Of a stretch of 64,000 nt of DNA, positions 5,312 to 50,369 are shown in pieces. The translations under genes were made by a program, and so were the position numbers. Below the pieces are notes generated by a model. It was given only the letters and a program-made list of their open reading frames with translations. It ran no database searches and had not been told where the DNA came from. The DNA comes from Segatella oris. Lineage in GTDB: Bacteria; Bacteroidota; Bacteroidia; Bacteroidales; Bacteroidaceae. The stretch lies in the NCBI RefSeq assembly GCF_900637655.1, contig NZ_LR134384.1, positions 2,823,501 to 2,887,500 of the forward strand. Reading direction: 5' to 3'. The stretch's first letter is position 1, and the number at the start of each line of letters is the position of its first letter.

Positions 5312-5584
5312 AAAATATAAATGTTTAATTAATCGGGACTACCCCGACAATATTAAAAAAATAATCCGTTTGAAAAACGATTGAAGTAAAGTGAGTGATA
5401 TTCTCTGTCAAGACAACTGCTGTCAGATGAATTTCCAATCTGCATCAGGTTACGGTGTGATTTGCATCAGATCAGCGTGTAATATGAGTCATTTCACCAC
5501 GCAAGATGCGTCAGATTGCAAAGCATTGTGCAACAGTCTGTCTGTCAACACAAAAGACATCAATCACTTTCTTGAATATCGATT
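5312..5584. other. wide gap inside the ribosomal operon (rpsN-rpsH)
   Basis: Elsewhere between rplC and secY the gaps are at most about 45 bp; this one is 273 bp. It contains a short hairpin (TCGGG 5333-5337 with CCCGA 5343-5347) near rpsH and the repeat array at 5414-5523. No reading frame here looks like a gene. Confidence 0.8.
5414..5523 (+). repeat. 22-bp repeat array A (5 units)
   Basis: Five units in exact 22-bp register begin at 5414, 5436, 5458, 5480 and 5502. Cores include CAATCTGCATCAGG, TGATTTGCATCAGA and CAAGATGCGTCAGATTG. The first unit is a degenerate CAAC type, and the array ends in TTGCAAAGC. Its polarity is opposite to transcription of the surrounding operon. See array D for the clearest copies. 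Confidence 0.8.
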
Positions 5585-5887
5585 TTACCAGCTTGCCTTC
5601 TTCACTCCGGGAATCAAACCTGCTGATGCCATCTCACGGAACTGGATACGAGAGAGACCGAACTGGCGGATATACCCTTTAGGACGGCCTGTAATCTTGC
5701 AACGGTTGTGGAGACGGATAGGGTTAGCATTCTTTGGAATGGCCTGGAGTTTACGAGCTGCCTCGTAAGCTTCAGCAGGATCCTCAGAAGTAGCGATGAT
5801 CTTTTTCAGAGCTGCGCGCTTTTCAGCGTAACGAGCAACAAGCTTTGCACGCTTAATTTCGCGGGCTTTCATTGATTCTTTTGCCAT
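5585..5887 (-). CDS. rpsN: 30S ribosomal protein S14, long zinc-free type
   Basis: This 100-residue protein starts [20 protein letters not shown] and has the S14 signature [20 protein letters not shown] near the C-terminus. The four-Cys zinc site of the short form is absent, so it is the long C-minus form. S14 lies in the head of the small subunit beside S3 and S10. It follows rplE by 5 bp. Confidence 0.97.
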
Positions 5888-5892
5888 ATTCC

Positions 5893-6447
5893 TTAATCGT
5901 TTTTAGCGTTCTTGAATGGAAGACCGAAAGCCTTGAGCAGCGCAAGACCTTCTTCGTCAGTCGCAGCTGAAGTTACGAAGGTGATGTTCATACCCTGGAT
6001 GCGGTCGATCTCATCGATATTAATCTCTGGGAAGATAATCTGCTCGGTAATACCCAAAGTGTAGTTACCGCGGCCATCGAGCTTGGTAGCGATACCCTTG
6101 AAGTCACGGATACGTGGAAGAGAAACGCGGATGAGCTTCTCAAGGAACTCATACATGCGCTCACCACGCAATGTCACCATAACACCGATTGGCATCTTCT
6201 TACGAAGCTTGAAGTTTGCAATATCCTTCTTAGAATAGGTTGCAACAGCCTTCTGACCAGTGATTGCTGTGATTTCATTAACTGCTACGTCAACAATCTT
6301 CTTGTCCTGTGTAGCATCGCCGAGACCCTGATTAATCACAATCTTCTTCAAGACAGGAACCTGCATTGCCGAAGAATAGTTGAACTGCTTCTGAAGTGCA
6401 GGAGCAATGGTCTCCTTATATACTTTCTTTAACTGTGCTGTATCCAT
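5893..6447 (-). CDS. rplE: 50S ribosomal protein L5
   Basis: This 184-residue protein has the L5 motifs [34 protein letters not shown] and [21 protein letters not shown]5 binds 5S rRNA and forms an intersubunit bridge with S13. Its ATG overlaps the rplX stop by one base (TAATG), which indicates translational coupling. Confidence 0.97.
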
Positions 6448-6764
6448 TACTTAATTTCCTCCCCTGACTTTTTAGCGATACGAATCACGTTCTTGCCTTC
6501 ATGCTTGATGGCAACACGAGTGGCTTTACCACTCTTGGGATCGATCAGACTCAGATTTGAAATATGAATAGAAGCCTCCTGCTTTACGATGCCTCCCTGG
6601 GGGTTCTTAGCTGAAGGCTTGGTGCTCTTTGAAACGAGGTTTACTCCCTCTACGATAGCACGGTTCTTGCTAACCAACACCTTGAGCACTTTACCAGTCT
6701 TGCCCTTGTCGCTTCCGGCAAGAACAACAACTTTGTCGTCTTTTCTTATATGTAACTTACTCAT
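6447..6764 (-). CDS. rplX: 50S ribosomal protein L24
   Basis: This 105-residue protein has the KOW motif at its N-terminus ([40 protein letters not shown]). L24 starts large-subunit assembly by binding the 5' end of 23S rRNA. The final A of its stop region is shared with the rplE start. It follows rplN by 22 bp. Confidence 0.97.
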
Positions 6765-6786
6765 TACTTACTTGTTTTATGATTAA

Positions 6787-7152
6787 TTAAAGAACCTCTG
6801 GTGCCAAAGAAACAACCTTCATATTCACAGTGCGAAGCTCACGTGCAACAGGGCCGAAGATACGGCTTCCACGAAGTTCTCCTGCATTGTTGAGCAACAC
6901 ACAAGCGTTGTCGTCGAAACGGATGTAAGAACCATCGGCACGACGGATTTCTTTCTTTGTGCGAACGATCAAAGCCTTTGATACTGCACCCTTTTTCAAA
7001 TCACTTGATGGGATGACGTTCTGGACAGCTACCACAATAACGTCACCGACACTGGCATAACGACGGCGGGTACCACCAAGAACACGGATACATTTAGCCT
7101 CACGTGCGCCGCTGTTATCACATACTGTAAGTTTTGATTCTGCCTGTATCAT
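6787..7152 (-). CDS. rplN: 50S ribosomal protein L14
   Basis: This 121-residue protein starts [20 protein letters not shown] and ends [17 protein letters not shown], the normal L14 ends. L14 is a five-stranded barrel protein that forms intersubunit bridges. The start is the conserved MIQ. It follows rpsQ with only 2 bp between them. Confidence 0.97.
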
Positions 7153-7154
7153 AA

Positions 7155-7412
7155 TTACTTAGCTTTTTCAACAATTTGTACTAATCTCCATCTCTTTGTC
7201 TTAGACAGAGGACGAGTTTCTATGATCTGCACTGTATCACCTACATTTGCCTCATTCTTCTCGTCATGAGCATGGTATTTCTTTGTCTTCTGAACAAACT
7301 TACCATAAATAGGGTGCTTCTCTTTGAACTTAGATGCAATAACAATGGTTTTATCCATTTTGTTGCTGATGACAACACCCTGTCTTACTTTTCTTAAATT
7401 TCTTGTTTCCAT
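7155..7412 (-). CDS. rpsQ: 30S ribosomal protein S17
   Basis: The OB-fold protein reads [20 protein letters not shown], then [20 protein letters not shown]. An upstream in-frame ATG at 7421 would add MVQ. ATG 7412 is preferred because METRNLRK is the start I recall for Bacteroidetes S17, and no Shine-Dalgarno settles the matter. S17 binds 16S rRNA early in assembly. It follows rpmC closely. Confidence 0.93.
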
Positions 7413-7423
7413 CTGGACCATTA

Positions 7424-7618
7424 TTATTTATTAAGTTCTCTCTGACGAAGTTCTGTTTCGATGCGCGCGATATCACGACGAGCTGCCTTAATCTGTGATG
7501 GATTCTCAAGAGGTGCAATTGAATGGTTCAGCTTCAACTGGTTGAGCTGTGCCTTTGCATTCTCCAACTTCTCTGCCAATGCATTGACATCGAGTTCTTT
7601 CAATTCTTTCATCTTCAT
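7424..7618 (-). CDS. rpmC: 50S ribosomal protein L29
   Basis: This 64-residue helical-hairpin protein contains [20 protein letters not shown] and the L29 signature [20 protein letters not shown]29 lies at the polypeptide exit tunnel beside L23. The start may be Met1 or Met3 (MKMKELKEL); the difference is two residues. It lies 3 bp after rplP. Confidence 0.95.
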
Positions 7619-7621
7619 AGT

Positions 7622-8050
7622 TTAAGCGTTTTTATCGAAATCACGTCTAACAACAAACTTTGTCTTTACAGGAAGTTTCTGTGCTGCAAGGCGGAGAGCC
7701 TCTTTAGCAATATCAAAAGAAACTCCTTCTACTTCGAAGAGGATACGACCCGGTGTAACCGGTGCCACCCATCCAGCAGGATCACCCTTACCTTTACCCA
7801 TACGTACATCGGCTGGTTTACGAGTGATTGGCTTATCAGGGAATATACGGATCCAGACCTGACCCTGACGGTTCATATAGCGGTTTACGGCTACACGAGC
7901 TGCCTCAATCTGACGGCTGTTAATCCACTTCGGCTCAAGTGTCTTGATACCAAAAGAACCAAAAGCCAGCTGTGTACCTCTGTGCGCGTTGCCTTTATTG
8001 CCGCGTCCATCCTGAGGTCTTCTATATTTTACTCTTTTTGGCTGTAACAT
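7622..8050 (-). CDS. rplP: 50S ribosomal protein L16
   Basis: This 142-residue protein starts [20 protein letters not shown] and includes [20 protein letters not shown] and the [12 protein letters not shown] segment. L16 organises the A-site tRNA pocket of the large subunit. Length and order (rpsC-rplP-rpmC) are normal, with a 14-bp gap after rpsC. Confidence 0.97.
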
Positions 8051-8064
8051 GATAGCTTCTACTT

Positions 8065-8790
8065 TTAACGGTTATTGTTTCTCTTACGATTACCGCGGCC
8101 ATTACGACCATTAGAACGGCCACCATTCTGCTTCTCCTGAGTAAAGTTAGGTGTAAGTTCACGCTTACCGTAAACCTCACCACGGCAAATCCATACTTTA
8201 ATACCCAGAAGGCCTACCTTTGTAAGGGCCTCAGTTGCACAGTAATCGATGTCTGCACGGAATGTATGCAAAGGAGTACGCCCCTCTTTGAACATTTCCT
8301 TACGGGCCATTTCAGCACCGTTCAGACGACCTGTAATTTGAACCTTGATACCTTCAGCACCTGCACGCATCGTGTTCTGAACAGCCATCTTGATGGCACG
8401 ACGGTAAGAAATCTTACCCTCCACCTGGCGAGCGATGTTGTTGGCCACGATGTTAGCGTCGAGTTCAGGCTTCTTTACTTCAAATATATTGATTTGGATG
8501 TCTTTCTTATAGAGCTTCTTCAACTCTTCCTTAAGTTTGTCAACATCCTGACCACCTTTACCAATGACGATACCCGGACGGGCAGTGCAAATAGTGATGG
8601 TGACGAGTTTCAACGTACGCTCGATGACGATACGAGAAACACTGGCCTTAGCCAGACGCTCGTTGAGATACTTACGGATTTTGCAATCCTCTACGAGATT
8701 GTCTCCGAAGTTCTTGCCACCAAACCAATTTGAATCCCAACCACGGATAATACCAAGTCGGTTGCTTATTGGATTAACTTTCTGTCCCAT
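8065..8790 (-). CDS. rpsC: 30S ribosomal protein S3
   Basis: The start is ATG 8790 ([14 protein letters not shown]), giving 241 residues. A longer frame opens with TTG at 8829 but would overlap rplV. The KH domain carries the GKGG loop ([17 protein letters not shown]). The C-terminus is extended by an Asn/Arg/Gly-rich tail ([19 protein letters not shown]) that is low in complexity and probably flexible. S3 lies at the mRNA entrance and, in other bacteria, has helicase activity with S4 and S5. Confidence 0.95.
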
Positions 8791-8797
8791 TCTATTC

Positions 8798-9202
8798 TTA
8801 TTTTTCGTCGTTAGTTTTGGCATCAACAAACAAAGTCACGTGATTTGAACGCTTGCGGATTCTGTAACCACGACCCTGTGGTGCAGGTCTCATACGTTTC
8901 ATTGTAACACCTTCATCAACGAAGACTTTGCTGATATACAATTCACCGTCTTCAGCTTTGCGGTCATTCTTTGTCTCCCAGTTAGCAATTGCTGAGCGAA
9001 GTAATTTCTCAACGTCTGCAGCAGCCTGCTTTTTAGAGAACTTAAGTACTCCGAGGGCACGACTAACTTCCATACCACGAATCATGTCTACAACGTAGCG
9101 CATCTTGCGTGGAGAAGAAGGAACTCCCTTGAGCTTTGCGAAGTACAGATTTTTGCGAGCTTCCTTAATTTTCTCAGCTGCGATATGTTTTCTTGCTCCC
9201 AT
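8798..9202 (-). CDS. rplV: 50S ribosomal protein L22
   Basis: This 134-residue protein has the L22 core [20 protein letters not shown] and the tunnel-lining hairpin [21 protein letters not shown]22 lines the exit tunnel, and changes in the hairpin cause macrolide resistance; none is evident here. It ends 7 bp before rpsC and follows rpsS by 34 bp. Confidence 0.97.
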
Positions 9203-9236
9203 TATTATTCTTATTTGTTAAATGGATTAACCCCGC

Positions 9237-9506
9237 TTACTTCTTGTTATTACCAGAGTGACCACCGAAACGGCGTGTAGGTGCAAACTCTCCGAGCTTG
9301 TGACCAACCATATTCTCAGTAATGTAGACAGGGATAAATTTGTTTCCGTTATGAACTGCAACAGTGTGTCCCACAAAATCAGGGGAAATCATTGATGCTC
9401 TGGCCCAAGTCTTCACTACACTCGACTTACCACTCTCGTTCATAGCGAGAATCTTCTTCTCGAGCGATACGTTGATATATGGACCTTTTTTTAATGAACG
9501 ACTCAT
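9237..9506 (-). CDS. rpsS: 30S ribosomal protein S19
   Basis: This 89-residue protein reads [20 protein letters not shown] and contains [20 protein letters not shown] and the [14 protein letters not shown] end. S19 lies in the small-subunit head and bridges to the large subunit with S13. It follows rplB by 10 bp. Confidence 0.97.
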
Positions 9507-9516
9507 AATTTACTCT

Positions 9517-17767: not shown

Positions 17768-17966
17768 TAAAACAGACTCTCTTTGCAGGATATTAATAAA
17801 CCATGAATAAAAGTAATACAAGTCATTTGATTTCCGTAGTTATACGCGCTGGCTTCTATAAAAGCTGAGTGTTTGAGTAACAACAAGAAAGAAACAAAGA
17901 CCAATCAATAAAGAATAAACACCTAATGCAAATCAGCAGCTTAAACACTTCTATTTAATTACCTCG

Positions 17967-18054
17967 CAATTTGCATCAAATCACCACGCATTTTGAGTCA
18001 AATCAGAGTGTGAGTTAAGTCAGATTACAGCGCAATCTGCATCAAATTACACAG
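17967..18054 (+). repeat. 22-bp repeat array B (4 units)
   Basis: Units begin at 17,967, 17,989, 18,011 and 18,033 in exact 22-bp register. Cores are CAATTTGCATCAAATC, CATTTTGAGTCAAATC, TGAGTTAAGTCAGATTA and CAATCTGCATCAAATTA. A fainter unit may precede at 17,945. The copies are more diverged than in array D, and the array ends TTACACAGAGC. Confidence 0.75.
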
Positions 18055-18169
18055 AGCTTCTTGTGGAATATCAAAACAAGCTGCTATCAGGCTACTTTCA
18101 TTAAGGCTACCAACGAATGATACACAAGACATACAAACTTCAACAAACTACGGTAAATCCTTAAAAGCA

Positions 18170-18211
18170 GAAAGCCCACTCGGACAGTAGAAACTACCAG
18201 AGTGAGCTTTC
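18170..18211 (-). terminator. hairpin after the envelope operon
   Basis: GAAAGCCCACTC (18,170-18,181) pairs with GAGTGAGCTTTC (18,200-18,211), with one C/A mismatch. An inner GTAG-AAA-CTAC stem completes the structure. On the minus strand it is followed by a short TTTT run, so it probably terminates the operon that ends at 18,259. Confidence 0.5.
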
Positions 18212-18258
18212 AATCATCTCAAAAAGATAGATTTCTCCATTGGAGAAAAGTTCCTATT

Positions 18259-27665: not shown

Positions 27666-29315
27666 TCAGAAGCAGAAAGAGAATGCAGCGCCAAGAATGG
27701 GTTGGGAGACGCTTTTCTTTTGTGAGGCAACGTAAGGGGCAATATAGTCACTGATGTTATTGATTGTTTGTCCGTTGAGAGTTATAGAGCGGCCGGCATC
27801 TTTAAGGAAAAGAGTGGGAGCATAGGTTGACCTGTAGGTGCGACGCACAAAATTGTAATCAAGAAAGACTTTCCATGCCATTCTCGATTTACAAGCAAAG
27901 GTGGCAGAAAGTCCTGTTCCTATAATCGTTGCATTATCTCCACCCACTTGAAAGAAATTCCACTTGCTGTAGTAGGGCTTCCCGTTATCTTTTCCGTTCC
28001 CTTTTATTTCGAGTGTCGGCACGGTCTTACCATGTTGCGGATCATATTCAAATGCAATGTCTCGCTGATGTCCTTTAACTTCAGCAGTGACAGCAATGCC
28101 GTCTAAATAGCTTCTGCCCACAAGGAGTTTTGAACCTAATGCAAACCTTTTGCTGATAGGGAAATTGAAGTACACTCCACCGCTCCAGTTGAACTCTGCC
28201 ATGTGGTTAGATTCAACGGTCAGTGTGTAGCTGTCAAGAAATCCGGCATTTACAGAAGCGAGCTGGTTCAGAATTCCAATAGGATGCAGTGCATCCTTAT
28301 CATATCCTTTGACATTACGTGATGTAATCATCAGACGTCCACCCAAGCCAATATACCGATTTAGGAAATAGGCACTCTCGACGCCAACGGCAATGCCACG
28401 TGAAAGTTTAATCTTTCGTTTCTTTTGCCCATGATAATATTCGTTCAGTCCGGGAAGATGCTCCATGAAATCAAGATGACGCTCACTTAGGCCGATACCC
28501 ATTTGCACATTGAAGAAACTTGGATACTTATAAAGGTCAAGTTCGTCATCCCTGTCATGGCGTAACAAACCTTTGTTCTTGAAAAGTAAATCCCCCAAAG
28601 TATAGCCCATTTCTGTAGACAGAATACCAATACCCGCACCGGCAAACGTGTCGCTTGCCCAATGTCTGTTGTTAAGTACGCGCATACAGCCTGTTGCCGT
28701 AGCAAGCATATAGCCTGCAATGCTGTACCATGGGCTTCGAGTCATGCCATATTCTTTATGGAGTATTGTGGCAGCACTAAAGGCTGTGGCCGTATGACCG
28801 GAGGGGAAGGAGTTGTTTGTCGAACCATCCGGACGAAGTTCTCTGACAGAATATTTCATGGTTTCTACTAAAGTAGCCATGATAATCAATGAAGCTGCAC
28901 TGCTGACAGCATAGCGTTTGAGACTGCTTCGCCCCTCCACTCCCGCAACTTTCAGTCCTGTGGTCAGCAATAGTGGAGCATATTGTATATAGTTATCTGC
29001 AGATTGGTGGAAATTCAGTTGGAATTTATTGCGTACTTCCCTGATATTTCTTTTCTCACTTCTTAGTGCAATTCCTGCCACAATCCATGGCAGCCCTGCC
29101 AACGACATAGAAGCGTTGACCCTGTATCTGTATTCCTGCGTGTTATGATGAACTGCATTTCCCATGCTGTCAGTAAGGCTTGTTTCCTCAGTGATACGGC
29201 CTAAAGAGTCTGTCAGAGATGTGGTTGCCAAGCAATTTGCAGCTGTGAAAAGAAACATGAAACTTACTAACGCGCGGCAGTTCTTGTGTTTTATGATTGA
29301 ATTAGCGTGATGCAT
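27666..29315 (-). CDS. PAP2-family phosphatase fused to a barrel-like C-terminal domain
   Basis: This 549-residue protein has an N-terminal hydrophobic signal and the three PAP2 motifs: K154-x6-R161-P162, PSGH at 171-174, and R212-x5-H218-x3-D222 (His174 and His218 catalytic). Such enzymes dephosphorylate lipids such as undecaprenyl pyrophosphate or lipid A. The last 300 residues have an aromatic strand pattern (FNVQMGIGLSERHLDF, GVYFNFPISKRFALGSKLLV) and end SFCF, typical of outer-membrane barrels. A phosphatase domain on a barrel suggests action at the outer membrane, perhaps on lipid A; that is inference. It appears monocistronic. Confidence 0.8.
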   Translation of the reverse strand: MHHANSIIKHKNCRALVSFMFLFTAANCLATTSLTDSLGRITEETSLTDSMGNAVHHNTQEYRYRVNASMSLAGLPWIVAGIALRSEKRNIREVRNKFQLNFHQSADNYIQYAPLLLTTGLKVAGVEGRSSLKRYAVSSAASLIIMATLVETMKYSVRELRPDGSTNNSFPSGHTATAFSAATILHKEYGMTRSPWYSIAGYMLATATGCMRVLNNRHWASDTFAGAGIGILSTEMGYTLGDLLFKNKGLLRHDRDDELDLYKYPSFFNVQMGIGLSERHLDFMEHLPGLNEYYHGQKKRKIKLSRGIAVGVESAYFLNRYIGLGGRLMITSRNVKGYDKDALHPIGILNQLASVNAGFLDSYTLTVESNHMAEFNWSGGVYFNFPISKRFALGSKLLVGRSYLDGIAVTAEVKGHQRDIAFEYDPQHGKTVPTLEIKGNGKDNGKPYYSKWNFFQVGGDNATIIGTGLSATFACKSRMAWKVFLDYNFVRRTYRSTYAPTLFLKDAGRSITLNGQTINNISDYIAPYVASQKKSVSQPILGAAFSFCF

Positions 29316-29343
29316 TTACAGTTGTCGGACTTTATTTCTGTGG

Positions 29344-29374
29344 CAAAGATATATAAAACGATTGAAAAGTGAAA
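29344..29374 (-). promoter_or_regulatory. promoter for the PAP2 gene
   Basis: The minus strand has TTTC (29,371-29,374), a 19-bp spacer, and TATCTTTG (29,344-29,351). That is one -33 mismatch from the Bacteroidetes consensus. The leader is about 25 nt. Confidence 0.6.
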
Positions 29375-29474
29375 GCTATATGGCCGAAAGTTTATCCTAA
29401 TCTATCTTCAAGAAAGGACAGTTGATAAAGATGTTGCTGATATTAACAGAAATATCATGCCCTGCTTTACTTTG

Positions 29475-29584
29475 CAATCTGCGTCATATTGCGTTGTAAA
29501 GTGACTGGAATGACCGTGCAATCTGCGTCATATTGCGTGGTAAAATGATAGAGATTACAGCGTAAAGTGACGCAAGTTGCAGTG
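29475..29584 (-). repeat. 22-bp repeat array C (5 units)
   Basis: Units begin at 29,475, 29,497, 29,519, 29,541 and 29,563. Units 1 and 3 share CAATCTGCGTCATATTGCGT, while units 2, 4 and 5 begin TAAAGTGA or TAAAATGA, so a 44-bp higher-order period is visible. Read on the minus strand, it begins CAACTTGCGTCA and ends ATTGCAAAG, so it points toward the PAP2 gene start. Confidence 0.8.
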
Positions 29585-29753
29585 TGGTTTTCTGTAAACG
29601 GGGAATTCAAGTCTTGTTTGTGGGAAAACAGGATGTTGCGAGCCAACTTTCAATGCGTGTTCTCCTGATAATCTTCAACCTGTTTTTTGCATGAAGCTTG
29701 AAGTGAGTTGACCGCACGTCAGCAATGTTTTGAGCCTCCTTTTCCCCCTGCAT

Positions 29754-29787
29754 TTTGTCGGAATTCCCATTATTTTATTTATCTTTG
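29754..29787 (+). promoter_or_regulatory. promoter for priA
   Basis: TTTG (29,754-29,757) and TATCTTTG (29,780-29,787) are separated by 22 bp. The -7 element ends only 7 bp before the priA ATG, so the transcript would be leaderless or nearly so. Confidence 0.6.
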
Positions 29788-29794
29788 CAACTGC

Positions 29795-32213: not shown

Positions 32214-33755
32214 TTAGAAGTTGATGTCTACACCTGCACCGAACACGCTGTTGTTACGGGTGAAACGAGCTTTATAAGGCAGTTCGTTTCCGCCCACATT
32301 CTCGGTCTTGTCACCGTTGAAAGTAGAGTAGAAGGTGTGGAAGTAGGCCACGTTGAGATCGATTTTCTTGCTCAGATGTATGCAGGCACCTATACCCACA
32401 GAGTTTGAATTGGCCACGAACGACTTGTCATCCATGTATTCCTTGGTCAGACCATAGCTTGTGTTCTGCCATCCTGCACTTAGAGTAAACTTCTTGGTAG
32501 CATCAAATTCCACGCCTGCATTCCATTCGATTGTACCTCGTTTCAGTTTATCTTCGCGGTGTTGATAGGTTGTTGCCTGCTTATCGAAGAAGTAGTGGAA
32601 CCCCACATTGATGCGCAAAGGATCAATTGGATTATAACCTGCACCTATAGCAAGATAGGCAGGGATGTCGTTGGCAACAGTCTTGCCGTCGGCATATTCA
32701 CCAGTTGCCTCTCCAATCTTCTTGTCGAACTCATCCTTAATGGCTTTCATGGCATCTGTAACTGCTTTATTCGTGAGCACCGCTTTAGCCTGTTCAGGTG
32801 TCATGCCGGCTTTAACAAACTTGACAGCCAAGGTTTGTGGCAGATTACCGATACTTGGGAGCTGGTTTACCGACTCGTTCTTCAGGCGCATACGCGTCTT
32901 GAATTCATACTTCGCAGCAAAGTTCCAACGTCCTGTTTTGAAGTCAATACCAAGAATAGGTGTAAAGCCCACGCCCGTCTGGTCACAGTTCAATTCGATG
33001 TCTGAAGAGTTTGGTTTGGTTGCATCAAGCATTGTATAGAGAGGTACATTGCCCACTTTGATGTTGCGGACATAGCCATAATAATTACTCATGGCATATA
33101 CACCGCGCACACCGGCATAGGCACTAAGCTGAGAAGTTACACGATAAGCTGCACCCAAAGATAGGCTATAATAATATTGACGGCCACGCATATAGCTCTC
33201 GTAACTGTAGGTGCCTTGCTTGCCAAACTGTTGGTCACTGCTTAGTCCCAAGCGGTTTCCCGTTACCTTATCTAATGTCTGTGCCAGCTTGTTTACACCT
33301 GCAGCCGTCTCGCCGACAATCTTTTCAAACGAGCCAAGTCCATTGTCGAAAGTACATTTACCACCGCCACCGGTCACGCCAAACATCGCTTGGAAAGAGA
33401 ACTTCTTCCAGTTGTAGGCTGCCTGAATGGAGGGAAGTACAGGCGCAAAAGCCGTACCACGGAATTTGCGTTCGGTTGAATTGTTGTTCTGATTGAGCTT
33501 AAAAAGCGGGAATTCGTTGTTGATAATGCGGCTCTGGAACACGAGTTGCCAGTTCAAGGAGAGGTGCAGACCATCGCTCATGAAAGCCACACCTGCAGGG
33601 TTTGAATAGACACCATCAATGCCAATAGAAGCCTCGCGGCTCAGCATTCTGTTGAAGGCTACATTCTGGTTGGTGTTCGTCAGTAGGCCACCTGCCCACA
33701 TTGTCTGTGACGCTGAGATTGCAATTGCAATGAAAGCAAATTTTAATTTATTCAT
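32214..33755 (-). CDS. OMPP1/FadL/TodX family outer-membrane porin
   Basis: The start is ATG 33,755 (MNKLKFAFIAIAISASQTMW), giving 513 residues; a TTG frame at 33,785 lies inside the promoter. A signal peptide is followed by GLLTNTNQNVAFNRMLSREA and DGVYSNPAGVAFMSDGLHLS, the FadL N-terminal hatch with the NPAG motif. The end (NSVFGAGVDINF) has the terminal Phe of a barrel. FadL proteins take up long-chain fatty acids or other hydrophobic compounds; the substrate here is unknown. It is monocistronic. Confidence 0.88.
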   Translation of the reverse strand: MNKLKFAFIAIAISASQTMWAGGLLTNTNQNVAFNRMLSREASIGIDGVYSNPAGVAFMSDGLHLSLNWQLVFQSRIINNEFPLFKLNQNNNSTERKFRGTAFAPVLPSIQAAYNWKKFSFQAMFGVTGGGGKCTFDNGLGSFEKIVGETAAGVNKLAQTLDKVTGNRLGLSSDQQFGKQGTYSYESYMRGRQYYYSLSLGAAYRVTSQLSAYAGVRGVYAMSNYYGYVRNIKVGNVPLYTMLDATKPNSSDIELNCDQTGVGFTPILGIDFKTGRWNFAAKYEFKTRMRLKNESVNQLPSIGNLPQTLAVKFVKAGMTPEQAKAVLTNKAVTDAMKAIKDEFDKKIGEATGEYADGKTVANDIPAYLAIGAGYNPIDPLRINVGFHYFFDKQATTYQHREDKLKRGTIEWNAGVEFDATKKFTLSAGWQNTSYGLTKEYMDDKSFVANSNSVGIGACIHLSKKIDLNVAYFHTFYSTFNGDKTENVGGNELPYKARFTRNNSVFGAGVDINF

Positions 33756-33782
33756 CTTTAAAAATCTTAATGAAATTCGTCG

Positions 33783-33816
33783 CAAAGGTATTTAGATTGT
33801 TCTAAAAGTCTACAAA
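33783..33816 (-). promoter_or_regulatory. promoter for the FadL-type gene
   Basis: The minus strand has TTTG (33,813-33,816), a 22-bp spacer, and TACCTTTG (33,783-33,790). The leader is about 25 nt. The -7 element is a perfect match; the spacer is slightly long. Confidence 0.6.
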
Positions 33817-33857
33817 AACGCTAAAGTTTTTAATTTGTGTTAACATTAAAAGGCGAG

Positions 33858-33891
33858 TTTTATGCACACTTTTTGCTTTTTGTGCATAAAA
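33858..33891. repeat. 11-bp inverted repeat (hairpin)
   Basis: TTTTATGCACA (33,858-33,868) and TGTGCATAAAA (33,881-33,891) are a perfect inverted repeat with a 12-nt T-rich loop. It lies about 45 bp upstream of the FadL promoter's -33 element. It could be an operator or an RNA hairpin. Confidence 0.55.
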
Positions 33892-34063
33892 ACTGCGCAT
33901 TTTGAAGTGATTTGTGCAGTTTGTAGAGACATTGTTGGGCTGTTTCTGTGTGGAAATATGAATGGATCGGGGGATAGAATTGCGCTTTTAAGGCAGCTGA
34001 AAGAATTGATATGGGAAAAGGGGTTGCCTCATTCTGTTTTCTCATTAGCTTTTCATGGTTCTG

Positions 34064-34195
34064 CAACCTGCGTCATATCATCGTGCAATCTGCGTCAAGT
34101 TAGCGTGCAATCTGCGTCAAGTTAGCGTGCAATCTGCGTCAAGTTGCACGATAATCTGCGTCAAGTTACAAGCTCATTTGATGCAAGTTACAAAG
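34064..34195 (+). repeat. 22-bp repeat array D (6 units, best preserved)
   Basis: Units begin at 34,064, 34,086, 34,108, 34,130, 34,152 and 34,174. Units 2 and 3 are identical (core CAATCTGCGTCAAGTTAGC, then GTG), and unit 4 differs only at its end. The first unit is the CAACCTG variant, and the last carries the flipped core TGATGCA and ends TTACAAAG. The array points toward the lipoprotein gene at 34,434. The unit is loosely palindromic (CAATCTG - CGT - CAGATTG). Confidence 0.9.
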
Positions 34196-34404
34196 CGTTT
34201 GGATAGAGAACGAGTTTTAAGGCATTTGCCGATATGATTTCATATCATTTTAATGAGTGGCGGATAAACTGCAAAACCACAACTCTGTTTACGGGTAAAG
34301 CCTGCTTGTTAGTTTCCCTATGATGTATGAACTCCCTTGCATTATTTTTTGAATGAACTCAAAAAAAACTTCGATGGCGAGGCAAGATTAATCGTTTTTT
34401 ACAT

Positions 34405-34412
34405 TATATTTG
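34405..34412 (+). promoter_or_regulatory. possible -7 element for the lipoprotein gene
   Basis: TATATTTG matches TAnnTTTG and lies 21 bp before the ATG at 34,434. No convincing TTTG lies at the -33 position. Confidence 0.4.
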
Positions 34413-34433
34413 TGAACAAAATGATAGAATAAC

Positions 34434-40825: not shown

Positions 40826-41398
40826 TCACCATATCCGCCAACATAGAAGCACTGCAGAAAAGAGGAACAGCAACATGCAGATGATGTCTATATGGCGGTT
40901 ATGTTGCTGATAATAGGTGTGGGGAGACATCAGCCTCACCGTGTCGTTCCAGGGCTTTATCATGGGCTTTGCGGCATAGTAGACTAATTTTTGCGTCTTC
41001 ATGTCTATCAGAAAGTAACCTTTCTTGCTATGTCCGAGCACGTAGTTGCCTGCCACCTGCACGGAGTCTACCTCTGAAGGCATTTCCTCAAAGGCTTTAT
41101 TGTCTTGAATACTATAATGACTGCCCTGCGGATCTGTCGTCCACAGGGTGTATTGTGAGTTCAGTTTGATGCCATAATAAGTGCCTATCCAGTCCTCGCC
41201 TTTCCATATATTGCTGAGCGCAAAGTAAAAAACGAGGAGTACAAACGTACCCAATACGCATTTGAGAAGTCTCATCATCAGTTTTTTCATACGCTCTTTT
41301 CCGTTGTGTCCAAAGGTCCATTCGTTCATTTCGCAGCCCTGCAGACTTTGCAACTCCAATGAGGTTTGACGACTGCGGACAATGTGTCTTTTCTTCAT
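40826..41398 (-). CDS. predicted membrane protein, unknown function
   Basis: This 190-residue frame has hydrophobic segments at about 40-62 (LLKCVLGTFVLLVFYFALSN) and at the C-terminus (IDIICMLLFLFSAVLLCWRI). The middle domain, about 110 residues, lies outside the membrane. The start is uncertain, because Met24 or Met36 would place the first segment at the N-terminus. I recognise no family. It lies 14 bp from the convergent 7TMR-HD gene, and array E lies 62 bp upstream, pointing toward it. Confidence 0.6.
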   Translation of the reverse strand: MKKRHIVRSRQTSLELQSLQGCEMNEWTFGHNGKERMKKLMMRLLKCVLGTFVLLVFYFALSNIWKGEDWIGTYYGIKLNSQYTLWTTDPQGSHYSIQDNKAFEEMPSEVDSVQVAGNYVLGHSKKGYFLIDMKTQKLVYYAAKPMIKPWNDTVRLMSPHTYYQQHNRHIDIICMLLFLFSAVLLCWRIW

Positions 41399-41745
41399 TC
41401 AAGCGGCATCAAATCATGCCTCTGAATGACTTCATTATCAATCCCTATTAAAGCGCTTTGCAATCAGCGTCAAATGAGCCTGTGACTTGACGCAGATTGC
41501 GATGTAATCTGACGCAGATTGCACGATGACTTGATGCAGATTGCGCGGTGATCTGACGCAAATGAGAAACTGACGGGCACAAGATTGTCTTTTGCTTTGT
41601 CTGTCCCTGTGTTGCATGCAGTATTCAGTCATGCTGCTTTTCCTGTTTCGACGATCCGTCTAAGCACTGGTCTTCACATGCACAATGCTTCTTTAGCTTA
41701 TACTTTTCACGTCCTCATGATGCATTATGAATTACGCGTCGTGCT
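41399..41745. other. intergenic region with array E
   Basis: This 347-bp region lies between the nitroreductase 3' end and the membrane-protein start. It holds array E (41,461-41,570). I see no clear promoter or gene; a short frame here (41,438-41,632, minus) is made of repeat sequence. Confidence 0.7.
41461..41570 (-). repeat. 22-bp repeat array E (5 units, reverse orientation)
   Basis: Units begin at 41,461, 41,483, 41,505, 41,527 and 41,549. On the plus strand most read TGACGCAGATTGC, so the array runs on the minus strand. There it ends GCTCATTTGACGC then TGATTGCAAAGCG. That end and its flank match the end of array D over 57 bp (46 identities by eye). A weak extra unit may lie at 41,439. 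Confidence 0.85.
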
Positions 41746-43405: not shown

Positions 43406-43407
43406 TC

Positions 43408-46314: not shown

Positions 46315-46373
46315 AGGGTTGTTTCTATGCTTTTGTCTGATTTCCATGTGCAGATGATTTTGATTTTCCATGA

Positions 46374-46405: not shown

Positions 46406-46550
46406 ATGTCTGAGGGTTAAAAAAGCGAAAGAACGTTTGGGGAAGAAAAAGAAAATCAAGGTAAATTCGTTGGTAGGGGAGGATATCTGAGCGAGTGTGT
46501 TATTTATAGTACTTTGTTTATAAATAGAAAACAGCAACGCTGTTTCAATG

Positions 46551-46599
46551 TTTATAGGGCAGAGTTACCAAACGAAAGGAGGCTCCCCTGCCCTATAAA
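46551..46599 (-). terminator. terminator-like hairpin after the MalY-type gene
   Basis: TTTATAGGGCAG (46,551-46,562) pairs perfectly with CTGCCCTATAAA (46,588-46,599), with a 25-nt loop that contains a smaller GGAG-GC-TCC stem. The plus strand has a TTTTT run shortly after it; the minus strand has only a weak tract. It probably ends the DUF3737-MalY unit. Confidence 0.55.
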
Positions 46600-46655
46600 G
46601 AAATAGTTTTTATTACAAGCCACCATATATGTAATGGCTTAGTATGATGTAACTT

Positions 46656-47855
46656 CTACATCGGGCACCCTTGTGCCTCGTCAACCATATACGGACTAAG
46701 TTCTCTTCCGATGCGCTTCAAGCCCTCCATGAGCGTGGCACGTGGGCATGCAAGGTTGATGCGGAGATAGCAGAAACCGTCTTTCTGACCATACATGGTG
46801 CCACTGTTGACCAATACTCTCGCATGCTCCAAGAGGTCATGGGCCGCTTCGTCGGCAGTAAGTTCGATGCGTGACAGGTCGACCCATGCAAGATAAGTGC
46901 CTTCAAGACGGCATACTTCGAGTTTGGGAAGATATTCTGCAAAGAATTCCTTGAGCGCCACATAGTTCTCATAGAGATACTGTTTGAGTTCGTCAAGCCA
47001 TTCACCACCATTGTTGTAAGCCTCTTGCAGGGCTATTATTCCAAATGCATTGACATCACACACTTCGTTAATGTTGAGTGCTCTGTTGATGCGTTGACGT
47101 CTTTCAGGTTGGTGACAAACGATGTTTGCGATTTGCAGACCGGCAATATTGAAGGCTTTAGAGGGAGAGTTGAGCACCACACTGTTGTCCCTACATGCGT
47201 CGCTGACAGCTGCAAAGGGCTGATAGGTATAGCCTGGCATAGTGAGTTCGCAATGAATTTCATCGGAAATAACTTTCACACCGTGCTTCAAGCAAATGTC
47301 GTTCATGCGTTCAAGTTCTTCTTTTGTCCACACGCGTCCTGACGGATTGTGAGGATTGCAGAGCAGAAAAACGGTGGTTTTCTCATCGGCACACTTGCAT
47401 TCGAAATCCTCAAAATCAATCACATAACTGTCACCTTGTCTGCGAAGCGGGTTCTCTAAAACCTCGCATCCGTTGTTTTTGATAGATGAGAAGAAACAGT
47501 TGTAGACGGGAGTTTGTATCAACACCTTGTCGCCCGGCATCGTCATAGCCTTCAATGAGCACGAAATGGCAGGCACAACCCCCGAAGTATAGAGGATATC
47601 TTCACGTTGAATTTTCCATTGATGACGGCGGTCAAACCAATTGATGACAGCATCATAGTAGCTGTCGGACACGAAATTATAGCCAAAAGCACCATGTTCT
47701 ACACGCTTTTTCAGTGCTTCAATGATGCAGGGAGCAGTCTTGAAGTCCATGTCGGCCACCCACATGGGGATGATATCCTCCTTTTTTGGCAGATCCCATT
47801 TGTAGGAGTTGGTGCCCCGGCGTTCTACAATCTCGTCAAAATTATATTTTCCCAT
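46656..47855 (-). CDS. MalY/PatB-type pyridoxal phosphate C-S lyase
   Basis: This 399-residue fold-type I PLP enzyme has Lys233 in LNSPSKAFNIAGLQ as the cofactor lysine, Asp198 in VISDEIHCE and Asn167 in LLCNPHNPSGRVW. The N-terminus (MGKYNFDEIVERRGTNSYKW, then MWVADMDFKT) is typical of the MalY/PatB branch, which cleaves cystathionine or cysteine conjugates. Its true substrate is unknown. It lies 6 bp after the DUF3737 gene, so the two form one unit. Confidence 0.88.
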   Translation of the reverse strand: MGKYNFDEIVERRGTNSYKWDLPKKEDIIPMWVADMDFKTAPCIIEALKKRVEHGAFGYNFVSDSYYDAVINWFDRRHQWKIQREDILYTSGVVPAISCSLKAMTMPGDKVLIQTPVYNCFFSSIKNNGCEVLENPLRRQGDSYVIDFEDFECKCADEKTTVFLLCNPHNPSGRVWTKEELERMNDICLKHGVKVISDEIHCELTMPGYTYQPFAAVSDACRDNSVVLNSPSKAFNIAGLQIANIVCHQPERRQRINRALNINEVCDVNAFGIIALQEAYNNGGEWLDELKQYLYENYVALKEFFAEYLPKLEVCRLEGTYLAWVDLSRIELTADEAAHDLLEHARVLVNSGTMYGQKDGFCYLRINLACPRATLMEGLKRIGRELSPYMVDEAQGCPM

Positions 47856-47861
47856 TGTTGT

Positions 47862-48707
47862 TTATTTTGTTGTTTCGATTACACAGTCCTTGCCTTTCGC
47901 AAATTCATCATAGGTGATTTTACCGATTTCATCGGCCACAATCCTGCCGCTGATAGGGTTCTTGATTTCAGAAATTGCTCCCTTTATAGTGGCATTGATG
48001 TTGCGACTGTCTTCAAATGCGCGGTCGCAGGCAGCATCAAATGTGCAGTCTTCCAGAGTAATACCATCAAGATAGCAGAGCGGTTGCTCACCACTGATAT
48101 GGCAGCGCACGAGTTTCACGTTCTTGGAATGCCAAGCTAAGTATTCACCATCAAGCTCGGAGTCGTACACAGTGACGTTTTCGCACTCCCAAAAGCTGTC
48201 TTTTGTGGTGATTTTGGCATGATGCACTTCCACGTTCCTGCAATATTGGAACACATATTTTGAATCACTTGTGAGGCCGTCTACATAGATATTTTGAGAA
48301 AACATAAAAGGATAAGTGCCGTCATGCAATTCGACATTCGTCAGTTTCAGACCGTCAACTTTCCAGAAAGTCTCGTCAGCATCAGTGATTTTCACGTTCT
48401 CCAATTCCAGATTTTCCATTTCCCGAAAGAACTTCGGCCCGTCAATCACCGAGTCTTTCATCGTCATATTGCTGCTGTACCAGATAGCCGAGCGACTCTC
48501 CGGAGCAAAATAACAGTTGGTGATGAGGCTCTTGTCGACATGCCACCAAGGGTATTTGCCATAGAATTTTGAACCTTCACATTCTATATTCTGACAGCAT
48601 TTGATGCCCGATTCGCCATCGGTGATTGTGATATTCTCCAAGCGCACGTCCTTCATTCCAAAGAGAGGACGCTCGCCTCCAAACTTTTTATCCTTAATGA
48701 TTTCCAT
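47862..48707 (-). CDS. DUF3737 family right-handed beta-helix protein
   Basis: This 281-residue protein starts MEIIKDKKFGGERPLFGMKD and is made of short repeated strands (NVRLENITITDGESG-type, for example DGLKLTNVELHDGTYPF and NVTVYDSELDGEYLAW), typical of a beta-helix. I recognise it as DUF3737, whose function is unknown. It has no signal peptide. It overlaps no gene and is followed 6 bp later by the MalY-type lyase, with which it is probably co-transcribed. Confidence 0.82.
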   Translation of the reverse strand: MEIIKDKKFGGERPLFGMKDVRLENITITDGESGIKCCQNIECEGSKFYGKYPWWHVDKSLITNCYFAPESRSAIWYSSNMTMKDSVIDGPKFFREMENLELENVKITDADETFWKVDGLKLTNVELHDGTYPFMFSQNIYVDGLTSDSKYVFQYCRNVEVHHAKITTKDSFWECENVTVYDSELDGEYLAWHSKNVKLVRCHISGEQPLCYLDGITLEDCTFDAACDRAFEDSRNINATIKGAISEIKNPISGRIVADEIGKITYDEFAKGKDCVIETTK

Positions 48708-48843
48708 TTCTTTCTAACCTATTTTGATTTGATTTTTGATGTGGTAAAATAACTCTTTCACGATATAAATGCAAAAACTATACCAATTTTTCATTCTTCT
48801 TGAACTGTCAGTTTTGTCATATGGTGAATGCTATAGCAGGTAG

Positions 48844-49803
48844 TTACCATTTCAGATAGCCATATTTGTCTTTATACCACAGCTGAACTGCGTTGATGAT
48901 GTTCTGCCAAATCACGTAGACACAGGGTGCAATGGCTGCATAGGGATTGAGAAACGAGAGTGTGAGCCATATTCCAACCACCGTGTTTTTCTGTCCCAAG
49001 GCCTGTCCAGCGCCAATGCTGTCACCATAACGGTAACCTACAAGTTTGCCCATAGAGAACTGAAAGGTGGCCAACAGAAGCGGAATGATACACAAAGTTA
49101 CGAGCACCCAGCCCGAAACGGGGGCATTCATGATGTTCTGCATGGCAAGTCCCATGATGATAGAAAGGTTGAAACTCCAGAGGTAGAAAGCGATGTTGCG
49201 CTTTGTTTTCAGCCACGCAACGAAATTGGGGAGGAACTTTCGCGAGCATAAAGCCAAGCCTAATGGAATTACAAGCACCGTCAACACACGCTTGAGCACC
49301 ATCCATGCGGCCATGGCAAAAGTGATGTCGGCCCCTTTCTCCATGAGTGGAAAGAACAAAGGGATGATGATTGATGTGAAGCCATTGGCTATGAGAAGAT
49401 ACACTGTCAGTGATGCAATGCTGCCTCCAAGCTTGTCTACAATCACAGGAGCGGCCGCGGCAGTGGGGCAGATGACACAGATAAATACGCCTTCCCAGAT
49501 GAGTTTGTAGGTTGGATCAGTGCAGAGGTTGGCCGCAACGACACTCAATGCAGCCAAAAGTGTACGTATGCCTTGCAGGATAAAATGCCATTTGCGGGGT
49601 GTGAGGTCGTTCATCTGTATCTTGCAAAACGTGATATAAAGCATCAAGAAGATATTGACAGGCAACAACGTCACAAGCTTTGGCCCTATGTAGTCGCCAA
49701 AGGGAGTAAGCACAGCAATATGGGTGAAAACCAAATAGACAATGCTTCCGAAGACGATGGCACACAACAGCGTCCACTGCTTGATAAATTTAATAATGCC
49801 CAT
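48844..49803 (-). CDS. bile acid:sodium symporter (BASS) family transporter
   Basis: This 319-residue protein has about nine or ten hydrophobic segments. The VICPTAAAAPVIVDKLGGSI region and GQALGQKNTVVGIWLTLSFL resemble the two crossover helices of BASS proteins that bind sodium and substrate. The family carries bile acids, pantoate, pyruvate and other organic acids; the substrate is not predictable here. It is monocistronic with a -7 element close upstream. Confidence 0.78.
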   Translation of the reverse strand: MGIIKFIKQWTLLCAIVFGSIVYLVFTHIAVLTPFGDYIGPKLVTLLPVNIFLMLYITFCKIQMNDLTPRKWHFILQGIRTLLAALSVVAANLCTDPTYKLIWEGVFICVICPTAAAAPVIVDKLGGSIASLTVYLLIANGFTSIIIPLFFPLMEKGADITFAMAAWMVLKRVLTVLVIPLGLALCSRKFLPNFVAWLKTKRNIAFYLWSFNLSIIMGLAMQNIMNAPVSGWVLVTLCIIPLLLATFQFSMGKLVGYRYGDSIGAGQALGQKNTVVGIWLTLSFLNPYAAIAPCVYVIWQNIINAVQLWYKDKYGYLKW

Positions 49804-49832
49804 AGATAGTGCCGTTACCGATATATTTTATG

Positions 49833-49840
49833 CAAAGGTA
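49833..49840 (-). promoter_or_regulatory. -7 element for the BASS gene
   Basis: The minus strand has TACCTTTG followed by CATA, a perfect -7 match with a leader of about 25 nt. The nearest TTTG (49,865-49,868) is 24 bp upstream, longer than usual. Confidence 0.5.
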
Positions 49841-50098
49841 TATAAAAAAGTGGCAGATAGCATACAAAACCATTTGAAAAGTAGTTTCCATTCTTTGTAT
49901 TCGTTGCTTTTATTGAATGGTTTCTCGGTTGAAAAGGCTATTCTGTTTTACACATAAAAAAGTTAGTGTCAGTATACTGTAAATCGTTTATCCTACAGAC
50001 TCAATTTCCTTTAAATATTTGTTAAATGGAAAGTAAATAATCGGTGTTTAAATATAATTAACAAATGAGATGCCTGATAATCAGCAAGTTAGCTTCCC

Positions 50099-50158
50099 TA
50101 AGAACAAGAACTAGAACAAGAATAAAGAAAAAGACGAAGAAAAAGAAGTAGAAAAAAG
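50099..50158 (+). repeat. purine-rich tract
   Basis: About 60 bp of plus strand are nearly all A and G, with a direct repeat AGAACAAGAA at 50,101-50,110 and 50,113-50,122. Such tracts can form triplexes or slip during replication. No function is evident. Confidence 0.6.
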
Positions 50159-50281
50159 CGCCGTCGCCGATATTTTTGCTGTGAAACTGTTTTTGCCTAT
50201 CGGCATGAATATGTCGCGGGCAGTTATCAATGAAAGGCAATGTTGTTATGGTTTTCGTTCATACCGAAATGAGTGGCTTTC

Positions 50282-50369
50282 TGATTAAAGTCAGAATGCG
50301 TTGTGATTTGAGTCAGATTGATGAGCAAAGTGATGCAGATTGTAGGATGAAGTGCCTCAAGTTGTAGAA
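50282..50369 (-). repeat. 22-bp repeat array F (4 units)
   Basis: Units begin at 50,282, 50,304, 50,326 and 50,348 in exact 22-bp register. Cores on the plus strand are AAAGTCAGAATGC, TTTGAGTCAGATTG, AGTGATGCAGATTG and AGTGCCTCAAGTTG. Read on the minus strand it starts CAACTTGAGGCA and ends AATCAGAAAGC, parallel to the ends of arrays C and E. It is a diverged copy. Confidence 0.7.

What the first reader, a model, noticed from the sequence alone, without database searches (positions are those of the whole stretch)
5414..50369. A family of six intergenic arrays built from an exact 22-bp unit
Six arrays (A 5414-5523, B 17,967-18,054, C 29,475-29,584, D 34,064-34,195, E 41,461-41,570, F 50,282-50,369) share a unit of exactly 22 bp, with no spacer and no indel, about 29 units in total. 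The core is CAATCTGCGTCAA and the rest is a short linker such as GCGTG. The unit is loosely palindromic (CAATCTG - CGT - CAGATTG). Only intergenic sites carry it. A constant 22-bp step is about two helical turns, so the cores lie on one DNA face, as in a protein-binding array; an RNA-structure role is equally open. I know of no description of this family.
Basis: partly seen in the sequence, partly recalled or inferred. Interest (0 to 1): 0.82.

Follow-up and report, generated by a model that had tools for sequence, protein, structure and literature searches.

The report
Genome-wide 22-bp arrays in Prevotella relatives
An estimated 300 spacers between genes of this bacterium carry small ladders of a DNA motif repeated every 22 letters; a related species has such ladders at many of the places that could be compared but spells the middle of the motif differently, which looks like landing sites for an unidentified DNA-binding protein.

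Summary
The six arrays are real and belong to a genome-wide family. A sampled 692 kb of the 3.17-Mb chromosome holds 100 arrays (414 units; 1 chain in shuffled sequence), about 300 per genome by extrapolation. Spacing is nearly always an exact multiple of 22 bp, 73 of 100 arrays have 4-5 detected units, 2 of 414 units lie in called genes. The unit is a degenerate 19-bp dyad, GYAATYTG-NNN-CARATTRC, plus 3 bp: inverted half-sites every 11 bp. Only the register is exact, not the letters.

Evidence favours duplex-DNA recognition over RNA structure: no compensatory pairing here, centre and linker avoid self-complementarity, unit order does not improve folding, arrays are symmetric with inward polarity. 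A related genome (G495) repeats this architecture with another core. Beside orthologous genes, 11 of 23 array-bearing sides also bear one in G495, against 1 of 127 others, yet orthologous arrays are no more alike than random pairs. G243 shows no such positional conservation. Relatives also carry one-off 22-bp regions of unrelated sequence beside unrelated genes.

Best reading: multi-site binding arrays of an unidentified oligomeric protein, somewhat like BIMEs. The binder is inferred. RAYT-REP and MITE membership tests failed.

The parts
5435..5519 (.). Array A, 4 units of 22 bp, in the rpsN-rpsH spacer of the S10 operon (spacer 5312-5584)
   Evidence: profile chain; spacer 273 bp here against 73 bp in S. 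copri L031 and 74 bp in G243
17966..18050 (.). Array B, 4 units, between convergent genes (spacer 17768-18258)
29474..29580 (.). Array C, 5 units, between divergent genes (spacer 29259-29794)
34063..34191 (.). Array D, 6 units, between divergent genes (spacer 33702-34433); the most regular, with three nearly identical units
41460..41566 (.). Array E, 5 units, between tandem genes (spacer 41330-41745)
50281..50365 (.). Array F, 4 units, between divergent genes (spacer 49804-50587)
4916..5311 (-). rpsH (ribosomal protein S8), flank of array A
   Evidence: query, 95% identical in S. copri; gene name recalled from its sequence
5585..5887 (-). rpsN (ribosomal protein S14), flank of array A
   Evidence: tblastn in relatives; gene name recalled from its sequence

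Best explanation
Each array is a multi-site platform on double-stranded DNA. Half-sites of the form GYAAnnT are laid down in alternating orientation every 11 bp (8-bp half-site, 3-bp spacer), so they face about the same side of the helix; four to five 22-bp units make a symmetric 88-110-bp site with inward-pointing asymmetric centres. An oligomeric DNA-binding protein, not identified, would sit on it cooperatively. Because arrays lie in all kinds of intergenic region, usually well away from start codons and about every 10 kb, the role is more likely chromosomal (BIME-like: supercoil relief, insulation or nucleoid organisation at the ends of transcription units) than regulation of one gene set. 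When the binder's preference for the central bases shifts, the sites follow, which would explain arrays at conserved places with a replaced core in G495. Shown here: geometry, intergenic placement, symmetry and polarity, lack of compensatory pairing, and positional conservation with core replacement in one species pair. Inferred: that a protein binds, that it is oligomeric, and the chromosomal role.
For: Strict degenerate positions: in 182 units lying between two good units, taken whatever their own score, position 2 is C/T 182/182, position 18 A/G 182/182, position 4 A/T 182/182. No compensatory pairing; pair 9/11 z -13.2, linker 20/22 z -8.0 over 426 units; anti-complementarity recurs in G495 over 191 units (8/12 z -6.9, 9/11 z -5.1, 20/22 z -5.7). 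Whole-array polarity: in 45 4-unit arrays TGCGTCA-type against TGACGCA-type is 25/8, 26/5, 11/21, 12/23 by unit; in 27 4-unit arrays of G495 23/4, 18/9, 10/16, 4/23. G495 has 45 arrays in 495 kb (91/Mb, against about 94/Mb here), 29 of 45 with 4 detected units; its commonest cores are TCAGCCA/TGGCTGA (54 of 180 units). Positional conservation 11 of 23 sides against 1 of 127, p = 1e-9, while orthologous arrays are 0.556 identical against 0.563 for random own-G495 pairs and 0.641 within this genome. Copies only about 64% alike make gene conversion between copies an unlikely homogeniser (inference).
Against: No binding protein was found. Relatives hold one-off 22-bp regions of unrelated sequence, 13 in G495 and most of 34 in G243; a single conserved binder does not explain those, and the neighbouring genes examined share no regulator family. 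Positional conservation was not seen against the closest relative by fusA, G243 (1 of 15 against 3 of 118, p = 0.38; G243 regions were found by the less sensitive lag test). The 11 positive sides come from 7 arrays here and 8 in G495, one of them a weak two-unit chain, and orthologs were one-way best hits. The G495 profile was seeded with a half-site frame, so its arm similarity is partly built in, and no shuffle was run there. In G495 two conserved dyad pairs have z 2.1 and 2.8, and a few array ends here carry near-perfect hairpins (9 or more of 10 pairs at 1.0% of 194 ends against 0.2% expected). The phylum profile search found no other genome, but it listed only 17 matches even here.
Confidence: 0.45

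Rival explanations
1. A mobile extragenic repeat, REP/REPIN- or MITE-like: arrays are non-autonomous elements copied by a transposase, and their species-specific sequence reflects lineage-specific bursts.
For: Some arrays share longer flanks (up to about 430 bp in one group). Spacers without the array exist: rpsN-rpsH is 67-74 bp in S. copri, G243 and G382 against 273 bp here. The genome has three Y1_Tnp genes, with arrays at 5 of 6 flanks.
Against: No terminal inverted repeat in general: of 99 arrays, 2% exceed the 95th percentile of mismatched flank pairs. Only 10 of 18 genomes with pattern hits, this one included, have any Y1_Tnp match, and in the 12 Y1_Tnp loci read from other genomes the lag test, which misses some arrays, shows no 22-bp period. 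The Y1_Tnp element here has its own repeated palindrome CAACTCGGTACGAGTTG and one copy ends beside an array. Places are conserved between this genome and G495. Copies are only about 64% alike.
Confidence: 0.25
2. An RNA element: transcribed arrays fold into hairpins that end, attenuate or process transcripts between genes.
For: Enriched between convergent genes (23 of 93 spacers with arrays against 10 of 115 array-free spacers of 150 bp or more, p = 0.002) and nearer the upstream gene's end in 39 of 56 tandem cases. Folds better than dinucleotide shuffles (mean z -3.0). A few array ends hold near-perfect hairpins.
Against: Anti-complementary centre and linker pairs in two genomes; unit permutation does not change folding (z -0.09, SE 0.08, n = 186 strands); neighbouring internal units form near-perfect linker hairpins less often than random unit pairs; the mean array is symmetric, with no sense strand; 18 of 93 array spacers are divergent.
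Confidence: 0.12
3. A geometry-only class: any palindrome can be built into a 22-bp in-phase array, either by a copying or slippage mechanism with a fixed 22-bp step or because the helical geometry itself (e.g. wrapping by gyrase or HU-type proteins) is what is selected; the 300-copy family is one sequence that spread.
For: 22-bp regions of unrelated sequence in G495 (13) and G243 (most of 34). In S10-region stretches of 11 relatives, fetched for synteny, the non-coding count at lag 22 is 12 against a mean of 0.41 for lags other than 22 and 44 (a few of the 12 are orthologous between near-identical genomes). HU-HIG match counts range 5-65.
Against: The main family has strict base choices. In this genome, outside the main family, lag 22 (8) is no commoner than lag 21 (8). 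Correlation of HU-HIG count with one-off density is not significant (rho 0.56, p = 0.12, n = 9). Dyad symmetry of the G243 set is above the 95th percentile of a column-shuffled null in only 7 of 34.
Confidence: 0.18

Closest known systems
BIME / REP and REPIN elements with RAYT transposases (PMC3733652: abstract and passages; PMC3116915: passages; PMC2817692: search listing only)
   Same: Short extragenic palindromes in hundreds of copies, often grouped, found at convergent and tandem gene ends, often species-specific; E. coli REPs are described as gyrase targets in PMC3733652, which also reports CGTC-tagged repeats in Bacteroidetes.
   Different: Fixed 22-bp head-to-tail register with two equal 3-bp spacers; CGTC occurs in the centre of the dyad here, not as an unpaired end tag, and not in the commonest G495 cores; no compensatory pairing, whereas REPIN hairpins are reported to show it (PMC3116915); no consistent RAYT link.
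BrickBuilt, 23-nt minisatellite within a MITE of Porphyromonas gingivalis (PMC4596501: abstract, passages, section 7 part 1)
   Same: Tandem units without spacers, always intergenic, Bacteroidales.
   Different: Other sequence (AGAYCATARTATCCTCTCRTRTG), 23 nt, 19 loci, leader and tail with IS5-type terminal inverted repeats; these arrays have no general TIR and about 300 loci by extrapolation.
PINSR, 188-bp intergenic repeat of Prevotella intermedia (PMC4755523: passages and section 14)
   [quoted passage not shown] Prevotella.
   Different: Described as one 188-bp consensus detected by PCR in four related species; no 22-bp period mentioned in the text seen. The consensus is in a figure and could not be compared.
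Plasmid iterons (recalled, not looked up)
   Same: About 22-bp in-phase repeats read by a protein on one DNA face.
   Different: A cluster at a replicon's origin, direct repeats, not hundreds of dispersed sites.

Membership tests
RAYT-associated REP/REPIN | high-copy extragenic palindromes | tested here: met
   100 arrays in 692 kb; 2 of 414 units in called genes
RAYT-associated REP/REPIN | pairing kept by compensatory change | tested here: not met
   largest z 1.8 among nine dyad pairs here, several strongly negative; in G495 two conserved pairs reach z 2.1 and 2.8, while five pairs and the linker are at -3.5 or lower counting 5/15, 6/14, 8/12, 9/11, 20/22
RAYT-associated REP/REPIN | linked RAYT gene flanked by the same repeat | tested here: not met
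   10 of 18 pattern-bearing genomes with a Y1_Tnp match; 0 of 12 Y1_Tnp loci of other genomes with a 22-bp period by the lag test; in this genome 5 of 6 flanks have arrays but the element carries its own palindrome
CGTC- or GTAG-tagged REP | unpaired GTAG or CGTC motif at one end of the palindrome | tested here: not met
   CGTC lies in the dyad centre here and is missing from the commonest G495 cores; feature as in PMC3733652 abstract
BrickBuilt / MITE | terminal inverted repeats at element ends | tested here: not met
   flank comparison of 99 arrays: 2% above the 95th percentile of the null; array A has an inverted flank, whose sequence G344 and G500 share without an array
BrickBuilt / MITE | tandem unit sequence of BrickBuilt | tested here: not met
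   printed 23-nt consensus differs in length and letters from the unit; compared by eye
PINSR | match to the 188-bp consensus | not testable with these tools
CRISPR array | unique spacers of repeat-like length between identical repeats | tested here: not met
   linkers are 3 bp and units vary
Structured RNA family in Rfam 15 | match at gathering threshold | tested here: not met
   window: five tRNAs only
BIME-like gyrase or nucleoid-protein site | binding of gyrase, IHF or another protein in cells | not testable with these tools
   needs ChIP or in-vivo cleavage mapping

The most novel reading that the evidence does not exclude
Prevotella-lineage chromosomes carry a previously undescribed class of chromosome-organising or insulating sites defined by geometry (inverted half-sites every 11 bp, 22-bp period, whole-array symmetry), while the sequence read at the centre is species-specific and turns over genome-wide at fixed places, through rapid co-evolution between hundreds of sites and a fast-changing, perhaps multi-paralogue, DNA-binding protein.
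Probability: 0.3. Interest if true: 0.88.

Novelty: new variant of a known kind. Interest (0 to 1): 0.7.

Why it matters
Hundreds of alike-built, symmetric intergenic sites would be a large, unannotated layer of chromosome architecture in a widespread bacterial lineage. Conserved places with a replaced recognition core would be unusual in bacteria and would give a natural system for studying how a DNA-binding protein and hundreds of sites change together. It also gives a concrete bait (array DNA) for finding the missing protein.

Tried and rejected
RAYT/REP origin: Y1_Tnp genes exist here but not consistently elsewhere, and the element has its own palindrome. MITE with TIRs: not supported by flank comparison. 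RNA hairpins: not supported by covariation, unit-permutation and internal linker-hairpin tests; a few array ends are exceptions. Operators of self-regulated regulators for the one-off regions: 22 proteins beside 12 of the 13 in G495 and 35 beside those of G243 are mixed housekeeping genes (not every flank was given to the scan, and the tables show the 25 commonest of 36 and 60 families). HU-HIG paralogues as binders: count correlation not significant, and the model also rings in ordinary HU proteins of control genomes. Arrays in 80 named rpsH loci: three lag-22 regions before a coding filter, none after it with another threshold; these loci have little intergenic DNA. Shared flank families cover only part of the arrays. 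Own-G243 positional conservation: negative. Nine paper searches gave BrickBuilt and PINSR as nearest; no listed paper that I looked into describes this family. Papers were seen as abstract, passages or named sections only, none in full: PMC4596501, PMC4755523, PMC3733652, PMC3116915; passages only of PMC5771137 and PMC12306157.
Full report
OBSERVATION. Reading the six stretches in rows of 22 shows the register directly. Tandem Repeats Finder recovers period 22 at three of the six (B, D, E); the others are probably too divergent for it. The window lies at 2,823,501-2,887,500 of a single-contig 3,168,212-bp genome. The exact 11-mer AATCTGCGTCA occurs 99 times there (48 + and 51 -) against 0 for the reversed control pattern. 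A two-core pattern with up to 2 mismatches occurs 477 times against 0.

SAMPLE. I read 691,892 bases of this genome: the window, loci around the exact-core hits, and eight 20-kb stretches at round coordinates. The second part is selected for array presence; two of the eight stretches happen to contain a listed exact-core site. A symmetrised profile finds 100 chains of 2 or more units (414 units), 93 with 3 or more; one dinucleotide shuffle gives 1 and 0. The eight stretches hold 15 arrays in 160 kb, i.e. about 300 per genome by extrapolation. Seventy-three of 100 arrays have 4 or 5 detected units, 75 by extent.

ANATOMY. The profile is G-Y-A-A-T-Y-T-G-M-S-K-C-A-R-A-T-T-R-C followed by a 3-bp linker. 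Thus 8-bp half-sites alternate in orientation, separated by 3 bp on both sides: 11 bp per half-site, 22 per unit. In 182 units that lie between two good units and were taken whatever their own score (8 score under 7), position 2 is a pyrimidine in 182, position 18 a purine in 182, position 4 A or T in 182.

DNA OR RNA. Over 426 units no dyad pair shows compensatory covariation; the largest positive z is 1.8, while pair 9/11 has z -13.2 and linker pair 20/22 z -8.0. Of 315 units with intact TG and CA, 253 have the centre ACG, CGT, ATG or CAT. Adjacent internal units form near-perfect linker hairpins less often than random unit pairs (8 or more of 10 pairs: 6.0% of 316 against 11.9%); at array ends the opposite holds for a few (9 or more: 1.0% of 194 against 0.2%). 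Folding energy beats dinucleotide shuffles (mean z -3.0) but not unit permutation within arrays (-0.09, SE 0.08) or between arrays (0.05, SE 0.09), n = 186 strands. So the palindromic look is not kept for RNA pairing. Instead the array has polarity: left units mostly TGCGTCA-type, right units mostly TGACGCA-type (45 4-unit arrays: 25/8, 26/5, 11/21, 12/23; neighbour counts ++ 54, -- 59, +- 44, -+ 19).

PLACES. Of 93 spacers with arrays, 52 are tandem, 23 convergent, 18 divergent; their median length is 691 bp against 122 bp for 273 without (home-made gene calls). Four of the 100 arrays fell outside the spacer list. Convergent spacers are enriched (23 of 93 against 10 of 115 array-free spacers of 150 bp or more, p = 0.002), and of 56 arrays in tandem spacers 39 are nearer the upstream stop (p = 0.004). 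Arrays keep away from start codons (5th percentile 148 bp, median 333). Two of the eight stretches have no array of this family: one is a conjugative element (TraG, TraJ, TraM, relaxase), the other a dense glycoside-hydrolase cluster.

RELATIVES. Of 397 other genomes of the genus 382 have 0-7 two-core hits and 15 have 12-79, some with visibly different cores; one of these, G562, has more reversed-control hits (57) than hits (13), so its count alone means little. Lag analysis of stretches of 11 relatives fetched for S10-region synteny gives 12 non-coding tandem regions at lag 22 against a mean of 0.41 for lags other than 22 and 44, in 7 of the 11 genomes; a few are orthologous between near-identical genomes, and not all look palindromic. 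A sequence profile found no match in 394 other genomes of a phylum sample, but only 13 candidates per genome were scored and only 17 matches were listed even here, so breadth outside the genus is unproven.

G495. In 495 kb of G495 (fusA 85% identical) a profile learned there finds 45 arrays (29 with 4 detected units); the commonest cores are TCAGCCA/TGGCTGA (54 of 180 units), then TCACCCA (18) and TGGCCCA (12), with arms and linkers like those here. The profile was seeded with the half-site frame, so arm similarity is partly built in; no shuffle was run. Anti-complementarity (8/12 z -6.9, 9/11 z -5.1, linker z -5.7) and polarity (27 4-unit arrays: 23/4, 18/9, 10/16, 4/23) recur; two conserved pairs have z 2.1 and 2.8. 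Eighty-eight genes of the own sample have a one-way best hit as ortholog in the G495 sample. Of sides with an array within 500 bp here, 11 of 23 also have one in G495; of sides without, 1 of 127 (p = 1e-9). These 11 sides are 7 arrays here and 8 there, one a weak two-unit chain. A two-sided test with fewer cases gave 2 of 3 against 0 of 21. The eight pairs are 0.556 identical, random own-G495 pairs 0.563, random pairs within this genome 0.641 (two own arrays contain a one-base register shift, which lowers their values). So places are kept while the spelling follows the species. At rpsN-rpsH the spacer is 273 bp here and 311 bp in G495, both with arrays; 67-74 bp in S. copri (G240/L031), G243 and G382; 125-184 bp in the other seven relatives, of which G344 and G500 share the own outer flanks without an array. 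Spacers in the named loci run from 52 to 215 bp.

CONTRARY AND STRANGE. Against G243, the closest by fusA (86%), places are not conserved (1 of 15 against 3 of 118, p = 0.38); G243 has 34 lag-22 regions of many sequences, only 7 of which exceed the 95th percentile of a column-shuffled null for dyad symmetry. G243 regions were found by the lag test, not by a profile. G495 has 13 more lag-22 regions, several with their own clear palindrome, e.g. GGTGAGAAATATTTCTCACC and AGAGAATTTAAATTCTCT. In this genome, outside the main family, lag 22 (8) is no commoner than lag 21 (8). Of the proteins beside these regions, 22 in G495 share nothing beyond three SusD proteins, and 35 in G243 nothing beyond pairs of common domains. 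S. copri shows one 21-bp palindromic array.

MECHANISM. The simplest account of strict but degenerate base choices, in-phase inverted half-sites, whole-array symmetry, no pairing constraint, conserved places and replaced core is a sequence-specific protein that binds duplex DNA cooperatively and whose preference for the centre has changed between species (inference). Gene conversion as homogeniser is unlikely because copies within the genome are only about 64% alike (inference). The binder is unknown; HU-HIG match counts (5-65 per genome) correlate with one-off density at rho 0.56, p = 0.12, a lead only.

KNOWN KINDS. It works somewhat like BIME/REP elements, but fails the RAYT link, the end-tag and the compensatory-pairing tests; it resembles BrickBuilt in being an intergenic minisatellite, but lacks general TIRs and shares no sequence; PINSR of P. 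intermedia (PMC4755523) is the most likely published relative and could not be compared because its consensus is in a figure. No description was found in nine keyword searches of the held open-access library; papers outside it were not searched. On checking, corrected counts did not require a change of odds.

Noticed in passing
L205-L207 (own genome near 0.611, 0.624, 0.669 Mb): Three copies of an IS200-like Y1_Tnp element (one with a stop in the frame) with a repeated palindrome CAACTCGGTACGAGTTG; one copy abuts a 22-bp array.
   Followed up: partly
own genome 1,413,664 (L161): A 22-bp array of another sequence (GTCCAAA...TTGGAC type) inside a conjugative element that has no array of the main family.
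   Followed up: no
L001, L002, L004, L005, L007, L014, L017, L024: A larger repeat family (up to about 430 bp) around some arrays with CATTTCTATTTGGT and CGCGTATTT flanks and a direct-repeat-like TTGTAAAnAT...TTAACAT at both ends; the 9-mer CTATTTGGT is near 21 of 100 arrays.
   Followed up: partly
L012, L013, L025, L030 around the arrays: Shared flank with a Bacteroidetes-type promoter look (TATCTTTG, motif recalled) followed at once by a GGGAAAG...CTTTCCCTTTTTT hairpin, beside the array; possibly a short RNA or attenuator.
   Followed up: no
L006, L008, L010: Another dispersed repeat built of CTCCCCTCCTTGGGAGGGG hairpins next to arrays.
   Followed up: no
window 5312-5584 and relatives L256-L275: The rpsN-rpsH spacer in several relatives carries an imperfect inverted repeat ending in a T-run before the conserved CGGGGTAGTCCCG hairpin; the arrays here and in G495 sit inside it.
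   Followed up: partly
own genome 2,775,899 against G495 C1 near 129 kb and 225 kb: One array between convergent genes here; in G495 the two genes are apart and each has an array on that side, as if a rearrangement had its break near arrays.
   Followed up: no
L265:19288-19375 (S. copri): A 21-bp palindromic array (GTTGAACGTAAGTTCAGCA type), a possible 21-bp cousin.
   Followed up: no
G092 and others: HU-HIG (PF18291) match counts differ widely within the genus: 5 to 65 in nine genomes; the model also matches ordinary HU.
   Followed up: partly
window 52162-53948: Five tRNA genes within 1.8 kb, around an EF-Tu-like gene.
   Followed up: no
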